A DNA stretch of 64,000 nucleotides from Methylobacter sp. GTDB lineage: Bacteria; Pseudomonadota; Gammaproteobacteria; Methylococcales; Methylomonadaceae. The translations under genes were made by a program, and so were the position numbers. The notes beneath the pieces are model-generated. The model was not told the origin of the DNA and made no database searches. It saw only the letters and a list, made by a program, of their open reading frames with translations. This document shows, one piece after another, positions 33,840 through 40,108 of this stretch. The stretch spans positions 1 to 64,000 of the forward strand of contig JAUYMY010000057.1 of assembly GCA_030699385.1 (NCBI GenBank), read 5' to 3'. Position 1 is the first letter of the stretch. Each line of letters starts with the position of its first letter.

Positions 33840-34745
33840 ATGTCACCATCAATTACTACTAAAAAATTGGCGCTATTTTCATTAACCGGCGTTGCGCTGG
33901 CTGTGGCCAGTCAAGGCGCTGTTGCGCATACTCGGTTTGAAACGAATACTGTTGTTGAGGGGACTAAGGTTCATAACCAAGTCAATGTCGGGCATGGTTG
34001 CCCCCCTGCTACTGCCAGAAAGAGCTCCATGGGCACTACGGTTATATTTCCAAATGCGGTTAGTTTTAGCCCTGTTATTGGTATAGATTCGGGTGCAGGT
34101 AAGGTTTATACGACGACTGCAGCGGCGGATTATTATTCACCATTGTTTGGTATCGGTACGTTGATGCGTGTAGGTGGACCGTGGGAGTTGACTGATAATA
34201 AGGTTGATGAAAAAGGTAATAAAGATGGTTTCTGGGCAGGCGGAAAAGCCTATGATCAAACTATTTCAACAGCCATTGGTGTTGAATTTTATTCGGCGGC
34301 TGTGACCATTAAGCCGGAATCATGCGCCCGTTCAGTCACATTTTATGCGGCAATCGCCGATTTTTGCTCGATTGACGTACCTGGCGCGACGGCTAAGGAT
34401 GAGGAAGTTTTGTATTGGTCGCCAATTCCTAATTTTGAAGGTGTACCTGGACAGCCTTTTGGCGCGCCGACTGCCGATGAGGCTCGTAAAATCCCGGCAG
34501 GGCCTAGTTATTCCAATTATGATGGCTATGCTGACGCCGCTCACACCATTGCAGGCGATGGCTGGGGTTCACCGGCTACGTTGAAAGTGACTAGAAATTT
34601 GACAAAGAATCCACTACCGGCGGGTTGCACAGGCAATGGCGGTGCGGGTGATGATGTTCATGTTTATCCTTCGGCTGAACAAATTAACAAAGAAATACCT
34701 ATTTGGTCGAATCCTAACCAAACCGGAAATGTTTATTGGCAGTAA
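33840..34745 (+). CDS. Secreted protein with YcnI-like (DUF1775) copper-binding-type N terminus
   Basis: 301 residues. The signal peptide ends AVASQGAVA, so the mature chain would start with His30. The following HTRFE and, about 25 residues on, VGHGC recall YcnI domains, where the N-terminal histidine binds copper. The remainder (about 90-301) is not recognised. It has several cysteines (SCARS, FCSID, GCTGN) and Trp-rich ends. Strong AAGGAGG site. It heads a run of small secreted and redox genes up to apbE. The YcnI link is by eye only. Confidence 0.6.
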   Translation: MSPSITTKKLALFSLTGVALAVASQGAVAHTRFETNTVVEGTKVHNQVNVGHGCPPATARKSSMGTTVIFPNAVSFSPVIGIDSGAGKVYTTTAAADYYSPLFGIGTLMRVGGPWELTDNKVDEKGNKDGFWAGGKAYDQTISTAIGVEFYSAAVTIKPESCARSVTFYAAIADFCSIDVPGATAKDEEVLYWSPIPNFEGVPGQPFGAPTADEARKIPAGPSYSNYDGYADAAHTIAGDGWGSPATLKVTRNLTKNPLPAGCTGNGGAGDDVHVYPSAEQINKEIPIWSNPNQTGNVYWQ

Positions 34746-34978
34746 TGTTTTAGGGTAGCTGTTTGTCGCGAACAGGTTAGCCTTCAATGTCAGCTCCCGG
34801 CAATAGCGGGGCGCTGATGTTGTTTTTGGTTGATTAGCTTCACTTCCGGTTTGCCAGTCCAACAAATAAAAAGTACGATTGCCATTTTTCCATTATCCAA
34901 ACAAGGCTAGCCGTTCAAAGAACGTGGCAGCACTGTTTGTCATTCATTTCCGCTAGCATTAGCGGCACGAGGAACATT

Positions 34979-35422
34979 ATGAGCATTGCATCTTTAAAAA
35001 AAGCGTTTATAGCAGCATCTATTTTGGCCGCTGCAGTTCCGGGTATTGCACAGGCGCATGGCGGCGGCGGCGCGATTGATCCTAATGGCGATAACGCCAG
35101 CGCAACTATTCTTGCGGGAGTTAATTGCTCCGGTGGCACCGATTTTCTTGTCGCTCAGGTTAGAGACGATTCCGGCTTTGTTCCGGGCTTGTTGCTCAGT
35201 CTTCATCTTCAAAAAGGTCAACAAATGACCTCGGTAACGGATACCGTTTCCGGTGATAATTTTGCTAGTGCCGAAGCGCATTTAGCAGGCGGTGATGGGC
35301 ATTATTATATGTCGCTGACTAAGACCGCTGCGGGTGCCCGAAATTTTGATGTAACTTGGCATTGCATGAATAACAATGGCGATCATACCGACACCGAGAT
35401 CGGTGTTTATCAAGTTCAGTAA
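34979..35422 (+). CDS. Small secreted protein, His-first, unknown family
   Basis: 147 residues. The signal peptide ends GIAQA, and the mature start HGGGGAIDPNG again exposes a leading histidine. There are two cysteines (VNCSGG, WHCMNN), which could form a disulfide. Hydrophobic beta-strand pattern. GAGG 6 nt before the ATG at 34979. It lies between the YcnI-like gene and the thioredoxin, so a role in periplasmic metal or redox handling is suspected. Confidence 0.65.
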   Translation: MSIASLKKAFIAASILAAAVPGIAQAHGGGGAIDPNGDNASATILAGVNCSGGTDFLVAQVRDDSGFVPGLLLSLHLQKGQQMTSVTDTVSGDNFASAEAHLAGGDGHYYMSLTKTAAGARNFDVTWHCMNNNGDHTDTEIGVYQVQ

Positions 35423-35479
35423 TTATCGCCGGTGGCTACGCTAGTAGCCGATGCGGTTTATCCAAACAAAGCGCTATCA

Positions 35480-36022
35480 ATGAATCAACGACTCTTAGTT
35501 CTACTTTGCGCCGCTCTGGCGCTTATTCCTCTGCATACGGCTGTTGCCGCCGAAATAGGCAGCCAAGCGCCGGATTGCGCACTCACTTCAATTAGCGATG
35601 CCCAGCACCATGATTTGCAACAATTTCGCGGCAAAGTGGTTTATGTTGATTTTTGGGCGTCCTGGTGTCCGCCCTGTGCAAAATCTTTTCCGTTTTTGAA
35701 TAAGCTGGAACGCGATTTTAAGGCGGATGGCTTGCAAGTGATCGGCGTTAATTTGGATCAGACCCCCGAAGATGCCACGGTTTTTTTAACGGAATATCCG
35801 GCTGATTTTACCGTGACAGCCGATGCCGATCAGCAGTGTGCAACGAAATTTGAGGTCAAGGCAATGCCTTCTTCTTATTTGATTGATCGTAAAGGCGTCA
35901 TTCGTCATATCCATTTGGGTTTTCGCGATGGTGCCGCCGAGGAGCTTCGGCTTGCTGTCGAGCAGTTATTGGCAGAAGCGCCCGAACTTGCAAGCAGCGG
36001 TGAGTCGGTTACGCAGCCTTGA
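35480..36022 (+). CDS. TlpA-like periplasmic thioredoxin
   Basis: 180 residues from the ATG at 35480. Signal peptide LLVLLCAALALIPLHTAVAA. The redox site is WASWCPPCAKSFPFL, with the cis-proline in AMPSSYLIDRKG. Proteins like this reduce cytochrome or metal-site thiols. In related genomes a TlpA protein stands directly before DUF4266, DUF3570 and ApbE, as here. Confidence 0.88.
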   Translation: MNQRLLVLLCAALALIPLHTAVAAEIGSQAPDCALTSISDAQHHDLQQFRGKVVYVDFWASWCPPCAKSFPFLNKLERDFKADGLQVIGVNLDQTPEDATVFLTEYPADFTVTADADQQCATKFEVKAMPSSYLIDRKGVIRHIHLGFRDGAAEELRLAVEQLLAEAPELASSGESVTQP

Positions 36023-36072
36023 TGATGTCTTTACACTCCTTCGCTCTAGCTTCATCTTTATACATAAGTTAT

Positions 36073-36130
36073 GGGAGCGGCCACCCGGTCGCGAACAGCG
36101 CACGATTGTTCGCGGCCGGTGACCGCTCCC
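36073..36130. repeat. 25-bp imperfect inverted repeat in the TlpA-DUF4266 gap
   Basis: GGGAGCGGCCACCCGGTCGC and its complement ending GACCGCTCCC enclose a short loop. A degenerate CCCACGCTGGAACCTGGGAACG hairpin (36150-36176) and a repeat-D fragment (36176-36200) follow. Confidence 0.65.
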
Positions 36131-36304
36131 ACAACTTTTATCGATGTCATCGTCCCACGCTGGAACCTGGGAACGATTTAAAAACCTGAAAGTTCTAACT
36201 AACTGGCAACACTTTGAACAGGTGGGCTGTTGTAGAGCGTCCATAATGATCAGCGCCGAAATGTGCGAACAATATATGAAAGCAACTTTAATGAGAACCC
36301 GCCA

Positions 36305-36520
36305 ATGAAGGCAATACAACACGGGCTGTTACTGGCTTTGTGCGTTTGTGTGTCGGCTTGTTCGCCGGTCGCGCCGTGGCAGCGGGGGAAATTGGCCAAG
36401 CCGCAGATGGCTTTAGACGCTTACCCGTTACAAAGCACTTTTAAGGGACATATTTACGGTAGCCGGGAAGCGGCAGCCGGTGGTGGTGCCGCTGGCGGGG
36501 GTGGTTGTGGCTGTTATTAA
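36305..36520 (+). CDS. DUF4266 lipoprotein-like small protein
   Basis: 71 residues. Lipoprotein signal with CVCVSACSP, lipobox cysteine about residue 19. The core has PWQRGKLAKPQMALD and the Gly-rich tail ends GGGGCGCY. This is the DUF4266 pattern. The family is found with DUF3570 and ApbE. It overlaps the DUF3570 reading frame at its 3' end, so translation is probably coupled. Confidence 0.85.
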   Translation: MKAIQHGLLLALCVCVSACSPVAPWQRGKLAKPQMALDAYPLQSTFKGHIYGSREAAAGGGAAGGGGCGCY

Positions 36521-39209
36521 ACGTTTATTGACTCGCACCGCCAAGTCGAAACCGGCGGCGAGTGCCTCGTTGCAGGCGCTGACAGCGGCGGCCTTGTTGT
36601 TGCCCGGACTGATGCCTGCATCGGCCCAGGCTGCGGCCTCAGATGAAGAAGTCAGTTTTTTATACGGCTATTATGAAGAGGGCGAGCGTGATCTGTTCGG
36701 CGTTAACAGCCGCTTTGACCCGATTGCGGTCAATAGTTTGCTCGGCAGTTCTAAGGTCCGGTTGTCCGACCGCTTGAAAGCGGCTTTTAATTACACTCAG
36801 GATAGCTGGAGCGGAGCGACGCCGATTGCCACCGCGCCGCTGTCTTTTGGCGGCAATAAAGAAGGTGGCGTGCTGTCAGGGGCGACACCTTATTTGCAAA
36901 ATAATAATGTGCTGTTTGACAAGCAGTTGAATCCGGTAAAACGCGATGCTAGCGGCGCTTATAACCAGGATACGCAACTGGTGCATACGCTGTCTTCCGC
37001 CTCGCCGGAAATTCGCAAACAAGGCGATTTCAAGTTGAGTTACGAATGGGATGAGGCGACGCTGGATGCCGGCGGCGGCATTTCGATAGAAAATGATTAC
37101 GAATCGCGCTTTGGCAATATCGGCGGGCGTTGGGATTTTAACCAGAAATTAACCAGTTTAAATCTGGGCTTGAGCTACACCAACAGCGATACCAACGCGC
37201 TACTCGATCACGATGCTACGCCGTATATCTATGACGCCGGTCGCGGTATCGATTCTTATAATGCGACTTCCTCAAGCGGCAATGTCCAAAAACAGAACCG
37301 GAACACGCTGCTCAGCGGCAATCGCCAGGATTGGGGCACGGCGCTGGGTTTGACTCAGGTGTTGAATGAAAGCGCGTTGCTGGAAGCAGGCGTAGGTTAT
37401 ACCCGCAGTACCGGCTACATGGCCAATCCTTACAAGGTGGTGCAAACTGCGTTCATTGATCCTGCGCAAACCGGTGAGTTATTAAATGGCGTGTCTATCG
37501 GCTTGCTGGAAAAACGCCCTGATGAGCGTAATCAATGGACTGAAAATTTGCGTTATGTGCAATATATCAACGGCCTGGATGCAGCCTTGCATTTTGATTA
37601 CCGTTTTTCCCATGATGATTGGGGCATTAACGCCCATACTTTTGAAGCCGATTGGGTGCAGCCGCTGGGCCAGGGCTGGACGGTCACGCCGAAAGTACGC
37701 TATTACTCGCAGGATGCCGCCGATTTTTACACGCCCTATCTCACTTCCAATCAAGCGCTGAGTAAAACCGCTGTTGATGAAAATGGCCGGACTATTTATG
37801 TGGATGCCGGTGATCCTAATAATGGCAATGTCTATTACCGTGATGACAATTTCAATCTGGTCGACAGCAGCGGCAATCCGGTCGATGAAACGACGGTGAA
37901 TCCTATCCGTAAAACCATCCCGTTTGACCGCAGCAAATTGCCGAGCGATTATTCCAGCGATCATCGGCTGTCGGGATTTGGCGCATTAAGCGGCGGCGTT
38001 ACTTTCAGCAAACAATTTGCTAAAGGTGTCAGCTTTGAAGCCAGCGCCGAATATTACACCCATGCAGGCGCCATGCAATTGGGCGGTAGCGGGGAGGGCG
38101 CTTATGCCGATTATGACTTTTACACAGTCAATGGGGTGTTGAAAGTCGACTTATCGGCGCTGTCTTTTTCCGGCGGCGGTCACAGCGCCCATGCCGGTCA
38201 CGGCGGGCATAGCCATCATGGCGGCCATGCGCCGGCCGGGGTGATGTTCGACCACATGATGGACAAGGCCGGTGACCTGATGTTTGGCGCGCGTTATATG
38301 CGCAGCACTCAGGACGGCACTATGTTGCAGGGTTCCAATAAAGTCAGCGATCAGGCCATTGTGCGACAGGGTTGTAACGGCGATCCGTGCTTCACCACGC
38401 CGGATTCGATGAACATGAATATGATCATGCTCGATCTGATGTACGCGCCGACTGACTGGTTAACGCTGATGCTGATGCCGCAGTTTATGGACATGGATAT
38501 GTCGACTCGCACACTCAGCGGTGCGCCCGCGCCAACTTTCGCGCAGCAATCGTTAATCAATCACCATACCTTGCACGAACACACCACAAGCGGCATCGGC
38601 GATACCGGCGTTTATGGCATGGTCAAGCTGTTCGACAAAGCCGGCCATCGCGTGCATGGCACCTTGGGTATCAGCGCGCCGACCGGCGATGTCGATATTA
38701 AATTTAGGGATACCCATCGCCTCGATGCCGGTTATCAGCATTACGGGATGCAGTTGGGCAGCGGCACTTGGGATTTCAAGCCGAGCGTCACTTATAGCGG
38801 CAAGCTGGATAAATACAGCTGGGGCGCGCAGCTTAACGGCACCGTGCGCCTTGATCACAACAACGAAACCGGCTTTGCTTTTGGCGACATATTCCAATCT
38901 ACCGCCTGGGGCAGTTACAACTTGCTAAATTGGCTGTCAACCTCGGTGCGCGGCGTTTATACCGTGCAAGGTTCGCTTAGAAACCAGTACAACGGCACTT
39001 TTCATCAGCTGGGCCCGATGGATTACCCCGGCAGTTACGGCGGGCGTTATTGGGATGTCGGTTTCGGCATCAACGCTTTTGTGCCCAGCGGCAGTTTGCA
39101 AGGCAACAATCTCAGTTTTGAATGGTTGCAGCCGGTCAGCGACGATGTCAACGGCTACCAGTTGCCGCGTGATGGCGCGCTGTCAGCTACTTGGAGTTAT
39201 GCGTTCTGA
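36507..39209 (+). CDS. DUF3570 outer-membrane-type beta-barrel protein with possible flavinylation motif
   Basis: About 900 residues. The frame is open back to 36480. The GTG at 36507, just after a G-rich stretch, is preferred. A signal-like segment ends PASAQA. DSWSGATPIAT at nt 36801-36833 fits the D-x-x-S-G-A-T rule of ApbE flavinylation sites, and a second SGAT follows 21 residues later. Repeated amphipathic beta strands and a terminal aromatic (WSYAF) suggest an outer-membrane barrel. A His-rich loop (HSAHAGHGGHSHHGGH) and a Met-rich stretch (MNMNMIML, MPQFMDMDM) lie in the middle and could bind copper. The final third resembles phenol-MetA-degradation/transporter-like barrels. Confidence 0.8.
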   Translation: MAVIKRLLTRTAKSKPAASASLQALTAAALLLPGLMPASAQAAASDEEVSFLYGYYEEGERDLFGVNSRFDPIAVNSLLGSSKVRLSDRLKAAFNYTQDSWSGATPIATAPLSFGGNKEGGVLSGATPYLQNNNVLFDKQLNPVKRDASGAYNQDTQLVHTLSSASPEIRKQGDFKLSYEWDEATLDAGGGISIENDYESRFGNIGGRWDFNQKLTSLNLGLSYTNSDTNALLDHDATPYIYDAGRGIDSYNATSSSGNVQKQNRNTLLSGNRQDWGTALGLTQVLNESALLEAGVGYTRSTGYMANPYKVVQTAFIDPAQTGELLNGVSIGLLEKRPDERNQWTENLRYVQYINGLDAALHFDYRFSHDDWGINAHTFEADWVQPLGQGWTVTPKVRYYSQDAADFYTPYLTSNQALSKTAVDENGRTIYVDAGDPNNGNVYYRDDNFNLVDSSGNPVDETTVNPIRKTIPFDRSKLPSDYSSDHRLSGFGALSGGVTFSKQFAKGVSFEASAEYYTHAGAMQLGGSGEGAYADYDFYTVNGVLKVDLSALSFSGGGHSAHAGHGGHSHHGGHAPAGVMFDHMMDKAGDLMFGARYMRSTQDGTMLQGSNKVSDQAIVRQGCNGDPCFTTPDSMNMNMIMLDLMYAPTDWLTLMLMPQFMDMDMSTRTLSGAPAPTFAQQSLINHHTLHEHTTSGIGDTGVYGMVKLFDKAGHRVHGTLGISAPTGDVDIKFRDTHRLDAGYQHYGMQLGSGTWDFKPSVTYSGKLDKYSWGAQLNGTVRLDHNNETGFAFGDIFQSTAWGSYNLLNWLSTSVRGVYTVQGSLRNQYNGTFHQLGPMDYPGSYGGRYWDVGFGINAFVPSGSLQGNNLSFEWLQPVSDDVNGYQLPRDGALSATWSYAF

Positions 39210-40108
39210 GGCGTTTGCATTATTACCGTTATGCGTTCAAGGCAATGGGTTCGCCTTGCGAGATACAGCTTTATGCTGATAGCCAAGCCGAAGCCAAACA
39301 GGTTGCCGATGCCGCTATTGCTGATGTGCAGCGGCTTGAAATGCGGTATTCGCGTTATCGTAGCGATAGTTTTTTGTCGGCGATTAATCGCGTTGCGGTC
39401 ACCGGCGGTAGTATTCGTGTTGATGATGAAACTGCAGGCTTATTGACTTATGCGGCAACTTGCTACGAACAAAGTGATGGCTTGTTCGACATCACTTCCG
39501 GCATCTTGCGCCGCGCCTGGCGTTTTGATTTGGGCAAATTGCCGGAACAACAGCAAATCGAGGCTTTGCTCGACCACGTTGGCTGGCACAAACTGCATTG
39601 GTCAGCACCAGAACTAACCTTCCCCAAGCCCGGCATGGAAATCGACTTTGGCGGCATCGTCAAGGAATACGCCGCCGACCGCGCCGCCGCCTTATGTTTA
39701 TCGGCTGGCGTCAAATGCGGCGTGATTAATTTGGGTGGCGACATCAAAGTGATTGGCCCGCGTAACGATGGCGAACCGTGGCACATCGGCATCCGCGATC
39801 CGCGCAACAAAACGGCGGTATTGCAAACCGTGTTATTGCGTGAAGGCGCACTGGCCAGCAGCGGCGATTATGAGCGCTGCATTATTGTTGATGGCCTGCG
39901 TTACGGTCATTTGCTCAACCCCAAAACCGGCTGGCCGGTACGGCATTTGGCGGCGGTCAGCGTGGTTGCCGATTTCTGCGTGGTTGCCGGTAGCGCGTCC
40001 ACCATTGCCATGCTTAAAGAAGAGGAGGGTGCGGCCTGGTTGGAAAGTTTAGGCTTGCCGCATCTTTGGGTTGATGTGCAAGGCGCAATCGGCGGTACGT
40101 TGGCCTGA
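39191..40108 (+). CDS. apbE: FAD:protein FMN transferase (ApbE)
   Basis: Attaches FMN to threonine or serine of extracytoplasmic proteins. About 300 residues with FKAMGSPCEIQLYAD, MEIDFGGIVKEYAADRAAAL and GVINLGGDIKVIG. The Mg/flavin region is RYGHLLNPKTGWPVR. No signal peptide is visible. The frame begins at a TTG inside DUF3570 and a second TTG lies at 39215, so the true start is uncertain. The 19-nt overlap with DUF3570 supports a shared function. Confidence 0.9.
   Translation: MELCVLRRLHYYRYAFKAMGSPCEIQLYADSQAEAKQVADAAIADVQRLEMRYSRYRSDSFLSAINRVAVTGGSIRVDDETAGLLTYAATCYEQSDGLFDITSGILRRAWRFDLGKLPEQQQIEALLDHVGWHKLHWSAPELTFPKPGMEIDFGGIVKEYAADRAAALCLSAGVKCGVINLGGDIKVIGPRNDGEPWHIGIRDPRNKTAVLQTVLLREGALASSGDYERCIIVDGLRYGHLLNPKTGWPVRHLAAVSVVADFCVVAGSASTIAMLKEEEGAAWLESLGLPHLWVDVQGAIGGTLA

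What the first reader, a model, noticed from the sequence alone, without database searches (positions are those of the whole stretch)
36801..36833. Possible ApbE flavinylation site in the DUF3570 protein
The sequence DSWSGATPIAT fits the D-x-x-[ST]-G-A-[TS] pattern modified by ApbE in NqrC and RnfG, and the apbE gene overlaps the end of the same DUF3570 gene. A second SGAT is 21 residues downstream. If flavinylated, this outer-membrane-type protein would carry electrons through the envelope together with TlpA and DUF4266.
Basis: partly seen in the sequence, partly recalled or inferred. Interest (0 to 1): 0.66.

Follow-up and report, generated by a model that had tools for sequence, protein, structure and literature searches.

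The report
Flavin-tagged double-barrel protein, copper links

Summary
The motif is real: DSWSGATPIAT lies at 36801-36833 and a second SGAT at 36876-36887. ApbE flavinylation of DUF3570 at two such motifs is already published, with proof in Chlorobium luteolum, as is the ApbE/DUF3570/thioredoxin/DUF4266 cluster (Meheust 2021).

The rest I did not find in the papers searched. (1) The 899-aa protein is predicted to be two tandem outer-membrane barrels: a 16-strand DUF3570 barrel with both sites, a His-rich linker, and a 12-strand COG4313/FapF-type barrel. (2) Topology rules put both flavin residues on the outer side. (3) ApbEs beside DUF3570 lack signal peptides (3 of 65 SP-like, against 14 of 15 controls), suggesting flavinylation before export. 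(4) Barrel 2 carries a conserved Met ladder; unfused relatives lie within 3 kb of the copper chaperone PCuAC in 11 of 28 genomes, all in two taxonomic families. (5) A YcnI-fold protein with an N-terminal His lies upstream.

Best reading: a flavin-bearing outer-membrane copper machine, probably reducing Cu(II). Copper chemistry and direction are inferred.

The parts
33840..34745 (+). Secreted YcnI-like protein (301 aa); predicted mature N-terminus is His (HTRF...), with HGC and a Trp invariant in its family
   Evidence: Model pLDDT 84.8; best VIA-align rows 8um6, 7me6, 7mek, 3esm at Z 9.8-9.2, next row 5.8; hhalign to 15 proteobacterial DUF1775 proteins P 3.2e-4, probability 39% (reverse P 7.7e-5, probability 62%, 41 columns), scores 32.1 and 35.4 against at most 16.3 in 20 shuffles; found in 30 of 42 two-barrel loci with at least 2.5 kb upstream
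34937..35422 (+). Small secreted protein; predicted mature N-terminus is His (HGGGG...)
   Evidence: Family found in 39 of 42 two-barrel loci with at least 2.5 kb upstream; an AH cleavage-like site in 44 of 60 members listed; no Pfam match
35480..36022 (+). TlpA/ResA-type thioredoxin with WCPPC (GTG start at 35432 also possible)
   Evidence: Pfam Redoxin E 1.3e-28; [WF]CxxC in 110 of 112 unique family members; TlpA-type gene near 98 of 116 DUF3570 genes
36305..36520 (+). DUF4266 lipoprotein with Gly-rich C-terminal tail ending CGCY
   Evidence: Pfam PF14086 E 2.2e-21; C-terminal CxC in 109 of 110 unique members, lipobox-like in 91 of 110; near 113 of 116 DUF3570 genes
36507..39209 (+). Two-barrel DUF3570 protein (GTG start overlaps the end of DUF4266); signal peptide about 36507-36632, judged by eye
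   Evidence: Pfam PF12094 E 1.9e-118; AF2 model pLDDT 81.6, pTM 0.74
36648..38150 (+). Barrel 1 (DUF3570), about 16 strands, mature residues 6-506
   Evidence: VIA Z 21.9 to 9a2o, itself a model of BamA (292 aligned, rmsd 3.9); about 18 to OmpG and CymA
36810..36821 (+).
36876..36887 (+). Flavinylation site 2, SGAT (mature S82-T85), in a long loop of low confidence
38151..38267 (+). Disordered His-rich linker (4-12 His in the 39 aligned proteins)
38277..39206 (+). Barrel 2, about 12 strands, COG4313/FapF type
   Evidence: VIA Z 23.7 to 4rl8, 252 aligned, rmsd 2.6
38409..38501 (+). Met ladder on two neighbouring strands of barrel 2 (mature 593-623, ten Met on one face)
   Evidence: 8-10 of 10 Met in 39 of 39 two-barrel proteins (columns)
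39215..40108 (+). ApbE flavin transferase without signal peptide (TTG 39191 or TTG 39215 as start)
   Evidence: Pfam PF02424 E 1.7e-76; SP-like stretch in only 3 of 65 DUF3570-adjacent ApbEs

Best explanation
The gene encodes an outer-membrane protein made of two barrels in one chain. A cytoplasmic ApbE attaches FMN to T63 and T85 while the chain is still inside the cell. The flavinylated chain is then exported and inserted, so that both flavins end up in the outer mouth or loops of barrel 1. Electrons from a DsbD-type carrier pass through TlpA and the CxC tail of DUF4266 to the flavins. The flavins reduce Cu(II), and Cu(I) passes along the Met ladder of barrel 2 towards secreted N-terminal-His proteins such as the YcnI-like one. 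Shown elsewhere: flavinylation of a DUF3570 by its ApbE. Supported here by computation: two-barrel fold, conserved sites, ApbE without signal peptide, Met ladder, copper-type neighbours. Inferred: outer-side placement, cytoplasmic modification, the electron route, Cu(II) reduction and import direction.
For: Published flavinylation and cluster. Site conservation. Gly of the motif kept in 75 of 75 genes with apbE within 2.5 kb against 14 of 20 without (19 unresolved genes left out, not corrected for relatedness). Two-barrel model. D57, W59, G61 and T63 lie on the face opposite the lipid-type residues 50, 52 and 54. ApbE beside DUF3570 SP-like in 3 of 65, those 3 being frames that run back into DUF3570, against 14 of 15 ApbEs elsewhere, the 15th having a lipobox (a home-made hydrophobicity rule). 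Met 5.5% in barrel 2 against 0.8% in barrel 1, and a His-rich linker in 39 of 39. Unfused barrel-2 relatives under 3 kb from PCuAC in 11 of 28 genomes. YcnI-fold neighbour with N-terminal His and Trp. pmoA/amoA in 12 of 17 two-barrel genomes tested. DsbD homologue elsewhere in the genome.
Against: No metal or flavin was measured. The 11 PCuAC neighbours fall in only two families of genomes (9 and 2); 8 further genomes have a PCuAC that is not near the barrel and 9 have none. Five of 17 two-barrel genomes tested lack a pmoA/amoA match: one is 72% complete, four were reached through MAG loci. YcnI binds Cu(II), which does not fit a simple Cu(I) hand-over. The YcnI relation is below Pfam detection and its profile probability is only 39-62%. 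One unfused barrel sits beside an arsenic-type operon (L182), and three Met-poor relatives exist. Six genes lost the motif Gly yet keep TlpA and DUF4266 nearby, so the core can work without its own flavin. Site 2 lies in a loop with pLDDT under 50. No coordinates were available to measure distances.
Confidence: 0.45

Rival explanations
1. A flavin conduit for general trans-outer-membrane electron transfer to extracellular acceptors, with barrel 2 a separate channel and copper only incidental.
For: DUF3570 proteins without barrel 2 exist well beyond methanotrophs: 29 of 398 phylum genomes have DUF3570, and of the loci shown from that search only G000 and G162 have barrel 2. Many of them keep apbE, TlpA and DUF4266. 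Flavinylation is tied to extracellular electron transfer and iron in PMC8238504.
Against: Met ladder and His linker in all 39 aligned two-barrel proteins, YcnI-fold neighbour, and PCuAC beside unfused barrels.
Confidence: 0.22
2. Copper export or detoxification: flavins and thiols control the copper redox state and barrel 2 lets copper out.
For: Fold and ladder do not tell direction; one unfused relative lies beside ArsR, an ArsC-type phosphatase and an SBF-family transporter, Acr3-like in my reading.
Against: YcnI is implicated in copper homeostasis and uptake (PMC8424229, passages, and titles), and PCuAC is described as a copper chaperone (Pfam name); two-barrel forms are common in genomes with copper monooxygenases.
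Confidence: 0.13
3. The flavins face the periplasm and serve thiol-disulfide or copper-loading chemistry there.
For: TlpA and DUF4266 are expected in the periplasm; the typical ApbE substrates are secreted or membrane electron carriers that work on that side (review passages, and general knowledge).
Against: Barrel topology rules and strand parity place T63 at the outer end of strand 3.
Confidence: 0.13
4. The motif is chance and this protein is not flavinylated.
For: One [ST]GA[ST] occurs in 18% of shuffles.
Against: Both sites conserved across the family; experiment in C. luteolum.
Confidence: 0.04

Closest known systems
ApbE-flavinylated DUF3570 of Chlorobium luteolum and the DsbD/thioredoxin/DUF4266 clusters (Meheust 2021, PMC8238504)
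   Same: DUF3570 domain, two [ST]GA[ST] sites, apbE, thioredoxin-like protein and DUF4266 together
   Different: That paper describes a domain of about 420 aa; its main text has no word beginning with 'barrel' or 'copper'. Here a second barrel is fused, with N-terminal-His neighbours.
YcnI/DUF1775 copper proteins (PMC8424229)
   Same: Fold, N-terminal His, Trp position
   Different: Below Pfam detection (1 of 29 members, E 0.11); longer, extra Cys; no DUF1775 match in 61 relatives
COG4313 channel (4rl8) and FapF
   Same: 12-strand barrel, Z 23.7 and 22.9
   Different: Fused to another barrel and with a Met ladder; I did not compare the ladder with 4rl8 or FapF themselves, but three distant relatives lack it
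Multi-barrel outer-membrane proteins (YjbH/GfcD, discussed in PMC8592465)
   Same: Two barrels in one chain, one FapF-like
   Different: GfcD is linked to exopolysaccharide and has a middle globular domain; no flavin sites appear in the passages read
Cytosolic ApbE of Klebsiella (review PMC12052999)
   Same: ApbE without signal peptide
   Different: Its substrate is a soluble fumarate reductase, not an exported protein

Membership tests
ApbE-flavinylated DUF3570 system | PF12094 match over cut-off | tested here: met
   396.4 bits against cut-off 25
ApbE-flavinylated DUF3570 system | two [ST]GA[ST] motifs | tested here: met
   36810-36821 and 36876-36887
ApbE-flavinylated DUF3570 system | apbE, thioredoxin-like protein and DUF4266 in the cluster | tested here: met
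   the thioredoxin here matches Redoxin/AhpC-TSA, whereas the paper counts PF13899
ApbE-flavinylated DUF3570 system | covalent FMN | not testable with these tools
   needs gel fluorescence or mass spectrometry
FMN-binding domain substrates (NqrC/RnfG type) | FMN_bind domain in the protein | tested here: not met
   Only PF12094 found in the 899 aa at E up to 0.001
YcnI/DUF1775 | Pfam DUF1775 over its cut-off | tested here: not met
   No match for the window protein; 1 of 29 members, E 0.11
YcnI/DUF1775 | fold | tested here: met
   Z 9.8, rmsd 2.7, 128 aligned, aligned range starts at model residue 1 and YcnI residue 27; the tool notes that best Z of 7-8 is common without kinship
YcnI/DUF1775 | N-terminal His and Trp of the monohistidine brace | tested here: met
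   H1 and W164 invariant in 29 rows, which were picked for an AH site; two partial members have Asp there. W164 aligns with the DUF1775 Trp
YcnI/DUF1775 | Glu of the brace (Glu50) | not tested
   Reported missing in many proteobacterial members
YcnI/DUF1775 | copper binding | not testable with these tools
   needs ITC or EPR
COG4313/FapF barrel | 12-strand barrel fold | tested here: met
COG4313/FapF barrel | sequence relation to the solved proteins | tested here: inconclusive
   FapF E 0.7 with the A1 profile; no barrel hit with the window's barrel 2 alone

The most novel reading that the evidence does not exclude
An outer-membrane barrel is flavinylated in the cytoplasm by a dedicated ApbE without signal peptide, exported with its flavins attached, and works at the cell surface as a flavin copper reductase joined in one chain to a Met-lined copper channel: a bacterial outer-membrane counterpart of the yeast Fre1-Ctr1 pair, feeding copper to methane and ammonia oxidisers.
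Probability: 0.27. Interest if true: 0.88.

Novelty: new variant of a known kind. Interest (0 to 1): 0.6.

Why it matters
How gammaproteobacterial methanotrophs and ammonia oxidisers take up copper for their key monooxygenases is only partly known. A recurring gene cluster joining a flavinylated barrel to a Met-lined barrel and a YcnI-type protein gives a concrete, testable candidate. The missing signal peptide of the dedicated ApbEs raises a separate question: whether a protein can cross the inner membrane and be folded into the outer membrane with flavins already attached.

Tried and rejected
Pfam and NCBIfam gave nothing for barrel 2 or the two upstream secreted proteins (the two NCBIfam hits to the DUF3570 protein were far below cut-off). 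PDB sequence search with the single protein gave no match. Foldseek on the whole two-barrel model ranks a TonB receptor first with rmsd above 20; not used. Pfam DUF1775 in 61 relatives: none. A first DUF1775 set of 18 rows held wrong frames and CopC-like proteins and gave P 0.49 with default settings, 0.0017 with a looser one; I rebuilt it with 15 rows by requiring a KP.PK motif. I considered that a missing apbE explains loss of the motif: 14 of 20 genes without apbE within 2.5 kb still keep the Gly. The six that lost it look alike in sequence, no tree was built, and so the Fisher value (4.5e-5) is not independent evidence. A seventh, L101 (TAAS), was among the 19 unresolved. A strict tie to copper monooxygenases was rejected (12 of 17). 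One locus fetched for the ladder, L185, gave no barrel frame in my gene picking and was left out; ladder positions were not aligned for the 20 further frames, whose Met content runs from 2.8 to 11.0%.

Paper searches: DUF3570 and DUF4266 each occur in one held paper. Searches for methanotroph + copper + flavinylation, ApbE + methanotroph, multi-barrel proteins, YcnI, methanotroph copper uptake, thiamine biosynthesis lipoprotein + methane monooxygenase + copper, Nitrosomonas + copper limitation, and ApbE + cytoplasmic + signal peptide showed no description of this cluster in their listings (one search listed 20 of 39 and one search listed 10 of 27). Passages were read in PMC8238504 (outline), PMC8424229, PMC11784148, PMC4831470, PMC13274458, PMC8592465 and PMC12052999; no paper was read whole. 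Preprints and most subscription journals are not in the library. A hairpin between TlpA and DUF4266 was not checked for copies elsewhere in the genome.
Full report
Check of the observation. The Thr that ApbE would modify is at 36819-36821. A second SGAT follows at 36876-36887, starting 22 residues later. The motif D-x-x-[ST]-G-A-[ST] is as given in a 2025 review (PMC12052999, passages). One [ST]GA[ST] is not rare in such a protein (18% of 20,000 shuffles); two within 25 residues are (0.14%). Across 116 unique DUF3570 sequences from methanotrophs, nitrifiers and a sample of the phylum, the modifiable residue of site 1 is Ser/Thr in 114 of 114 rows with letters, and that of site 2 in 110 of 114. 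The full [ST]GA[ST] at site 1 is in 85 of 114; in a further 16 the first residue is Gly or Ala.

What is already known. Meheust and colleagues (PMC8238504; passages) found two conserved [ST]GA[ST] motifs in ApbE-associated DUF3570 proteins (228 in their logo). They showed ApbE-dependent flavinylation of the C. luteolum protein, lost only when both sites were changed. They also described the cluster of ApbE, DUF3570, a thioredoxin-like protein and DUF4266, with DsbD in some genomes. The finding as given is a member of a described kind. DUF3570 and DUF4266 occur in no other held paper.

The window protein is larger than the described domain. Pfam DUF3570 covers residues 22-538 of 899. An AlphaFold2 model built on the window protein and 38 relatives (pLDDT 81.6, pTM 0.74) shows about 16 strands in the DUF3570 part, a disordered linker rich in His, and 12 further strands. 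VIA-align matches the first part to outer-membrane barrels (9a2o, a model of BamA, Z 21.9; OmpG and CymA about 18) and the second to the COG4313 channel 4rl8 (Z 23.7, 252 residues, rmsd 2.6) and FapF (Z 22.9). So one chain carries two barrels. Multi-barrel outer-membrane proteins have been proposed before, with a FapF-type barrel in YjbH/GfcD (PMC8592465, passages).

Where the flavins sit. With chain ends in the periplasm and short turns on the periplasmic side (general rules for such barrels), strand 3 (mature 48-68) runs outward. T63 is near its outer end and T85 in the long loop that follows. In strand 3 residues 50, 52 and 54 are lipid-type, while D57, W59, G61 and T63 lie on the other face; D57, W59, G61 and A62 are the same in 39 of 39 and T63 is Thr or Ser in 39 of 39. 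This places site 1 in the outer mouth of the barrel. It is an inference: no coordinates could be read, and site 2 is in a region with pLDDT below 50.

The dedicated ApbE appears cytoplasmic. Of 65 unique ApbE proteins within 2.5 kb of a DUF3570 gene, 3 have a signal-peptide-like stretch by a simple hydrophobicity rule, and those are frames that run back into DUF3570. In 27 of 65 at most 15 residues lie between the upstream stop codon and the domain. Of 15 ApbEs elsewhere in genomes of this set, 14 have such a stretch and the last has a lipobox. Cytosolic ApbEs are known, but for a soluble fumarate reductase (PMC12052999). In the published DUF3570 test the constructs followed those of the DUF2271 pair, whose signal peptides had been removed, and most of the substrate was in the lysed-cell pellet, so modification inside the cell is possible. 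Whether the native protein crosses the inner membrane with flavin attached is open.

Copper signs. Barrel 2 holds 14-23 Met (5.5%), against 0.8% Met in barrel 1. Ten Met positions on two neighbouring strands share one face, and each of the 39 two-barrel proteins has 8-10 of them. The linker has 4-12 His in 39 of 39. Barrel 2 also occurs unfused: of 299 phylum genomes 30 have a match, 2 fused and 28 in frames of 232-665 aa that I take as unfused. In 11 of these 28 the copper chaperone PCuAC lies within 3 kb; 8 more have a PCuAC that is not near, and 9 have none. The 11 fall in two families of genomes (9 in f47, 2 in f67), so they are not 11 independent cases. In one such locus a dihaem cytochrome and a thioredoxin-like protein stand between barrel and PCuAC (L189). 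Of nine unfused barrels aligned for the ladder, six have 5-10 of the ten Met and three have none. Upstream of TlpA, a 301-aa secreted protein occurs in 30 of 42 and a 161-aa one in 39 of 42 two-barrel loci with enough sequence. The first has the YcnI fold: 8um6, 7me6, 7mek and 3esm (the last counted as DUF1775 from my own knowledge) score Z 9.2-9.8 and the next row 5.8. Profile comparison with 15 proteobacterial DUF1775 proteins gives P 3.2e-4 at a probability of 39%, with the N-terminal His, HGC and Trp aligned; shuffled controls stay far lower. In YcnI the N-terminal His27 binds Cu(II) with Trp137 next to it, and proteobacterial members often keep His and Trp but not Glu (PMC8424229, passages). 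The window protein misses Pfam's DUF1775 model, so I call it YcnI-like, not a member. Two-barrel genomes carried pmoA/amoA in 12 of 17 tested; genomes tested for a shorter DUF3570 in 2 of 17.

Parts that do not fit neatly. Six DUF3570 genes without apbE within 2.5 kb (L103, L104, L108, L111-L113) keep TlpA and DUF4266 but have SSAS or SNAS at site 1; a similar one, L110, keeps SGAS. In three of the six genomes (G067, G306, G426) an apbE lies 6-12 kb away on the same strand; in the other three none is near. The core machine may therefore work without its own flavin, or borrow it. Ten sequences (L085-L094), eight of them with TGAS at site 1, have TRPS-type residues at site 2. YcnI binds Cu(II), so a simple Cu(I) import chain is not fully coherent.

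Mechanism and verdict. The most likely account is a flavin-bearing outer-membrane machine that takes electrons from TlpA and the CxC tail of DUF4266 (109 of 110 members end in CxC) and acts on copper, probably by reducing Cu(II) for passage through barrel 2. Flavinylation I hold at about 0.9, the two-barrel fold at 0.85, a cytoplasmic ApbE at 0.85, a copper role at 0.6, and reductive import at 0.35. The flavin site is known science; the two-barrel copper variant and the cytoplasmic ApbE for an exported barrel were not found in the papers I could search (searches listed under Tried and rejected).

Noticed in passing
36066-36137: Strong hairpin between TlpA and DUF4266 (-50.5 kcal/mol, z -8.1), possibly a mobile or terminator-type repeat.
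   Followed up: partly
L136 (9627-12653, -), L137 (12514-15399, -): Among DUF3570 loci lacking an adjacent apbE, a protein of about 1000 aa with a hydrazine-synthase-alpha middle domain lies in the same gene run; in L136 it adjoins an apbE.
   Followed up: partly
L051, L067, L068, L069: Two DUF3570 two-barrel genes in one locus.
   Followed up: no
L182 5836-8911: Unfused Met-ladder barrel next to ArsR, an ArsC-type phosphatase and an SBF-family transporter.
   Followed up: partly
L131, L132: DUF3570 frames of 1147 and 1231 aa with a long insert inside the DUF3570 part.
   Followed up: no
L054, L080, L133: Copies whose DUF3570 frame is split into pieces.
   Followed up: no
L037 998-1969 and relatives: A family (324 aa in L037) with helical-repeat-like sequence, by eye, upstream of the cluster; 28 members in 28 loci.
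   Followed up: no
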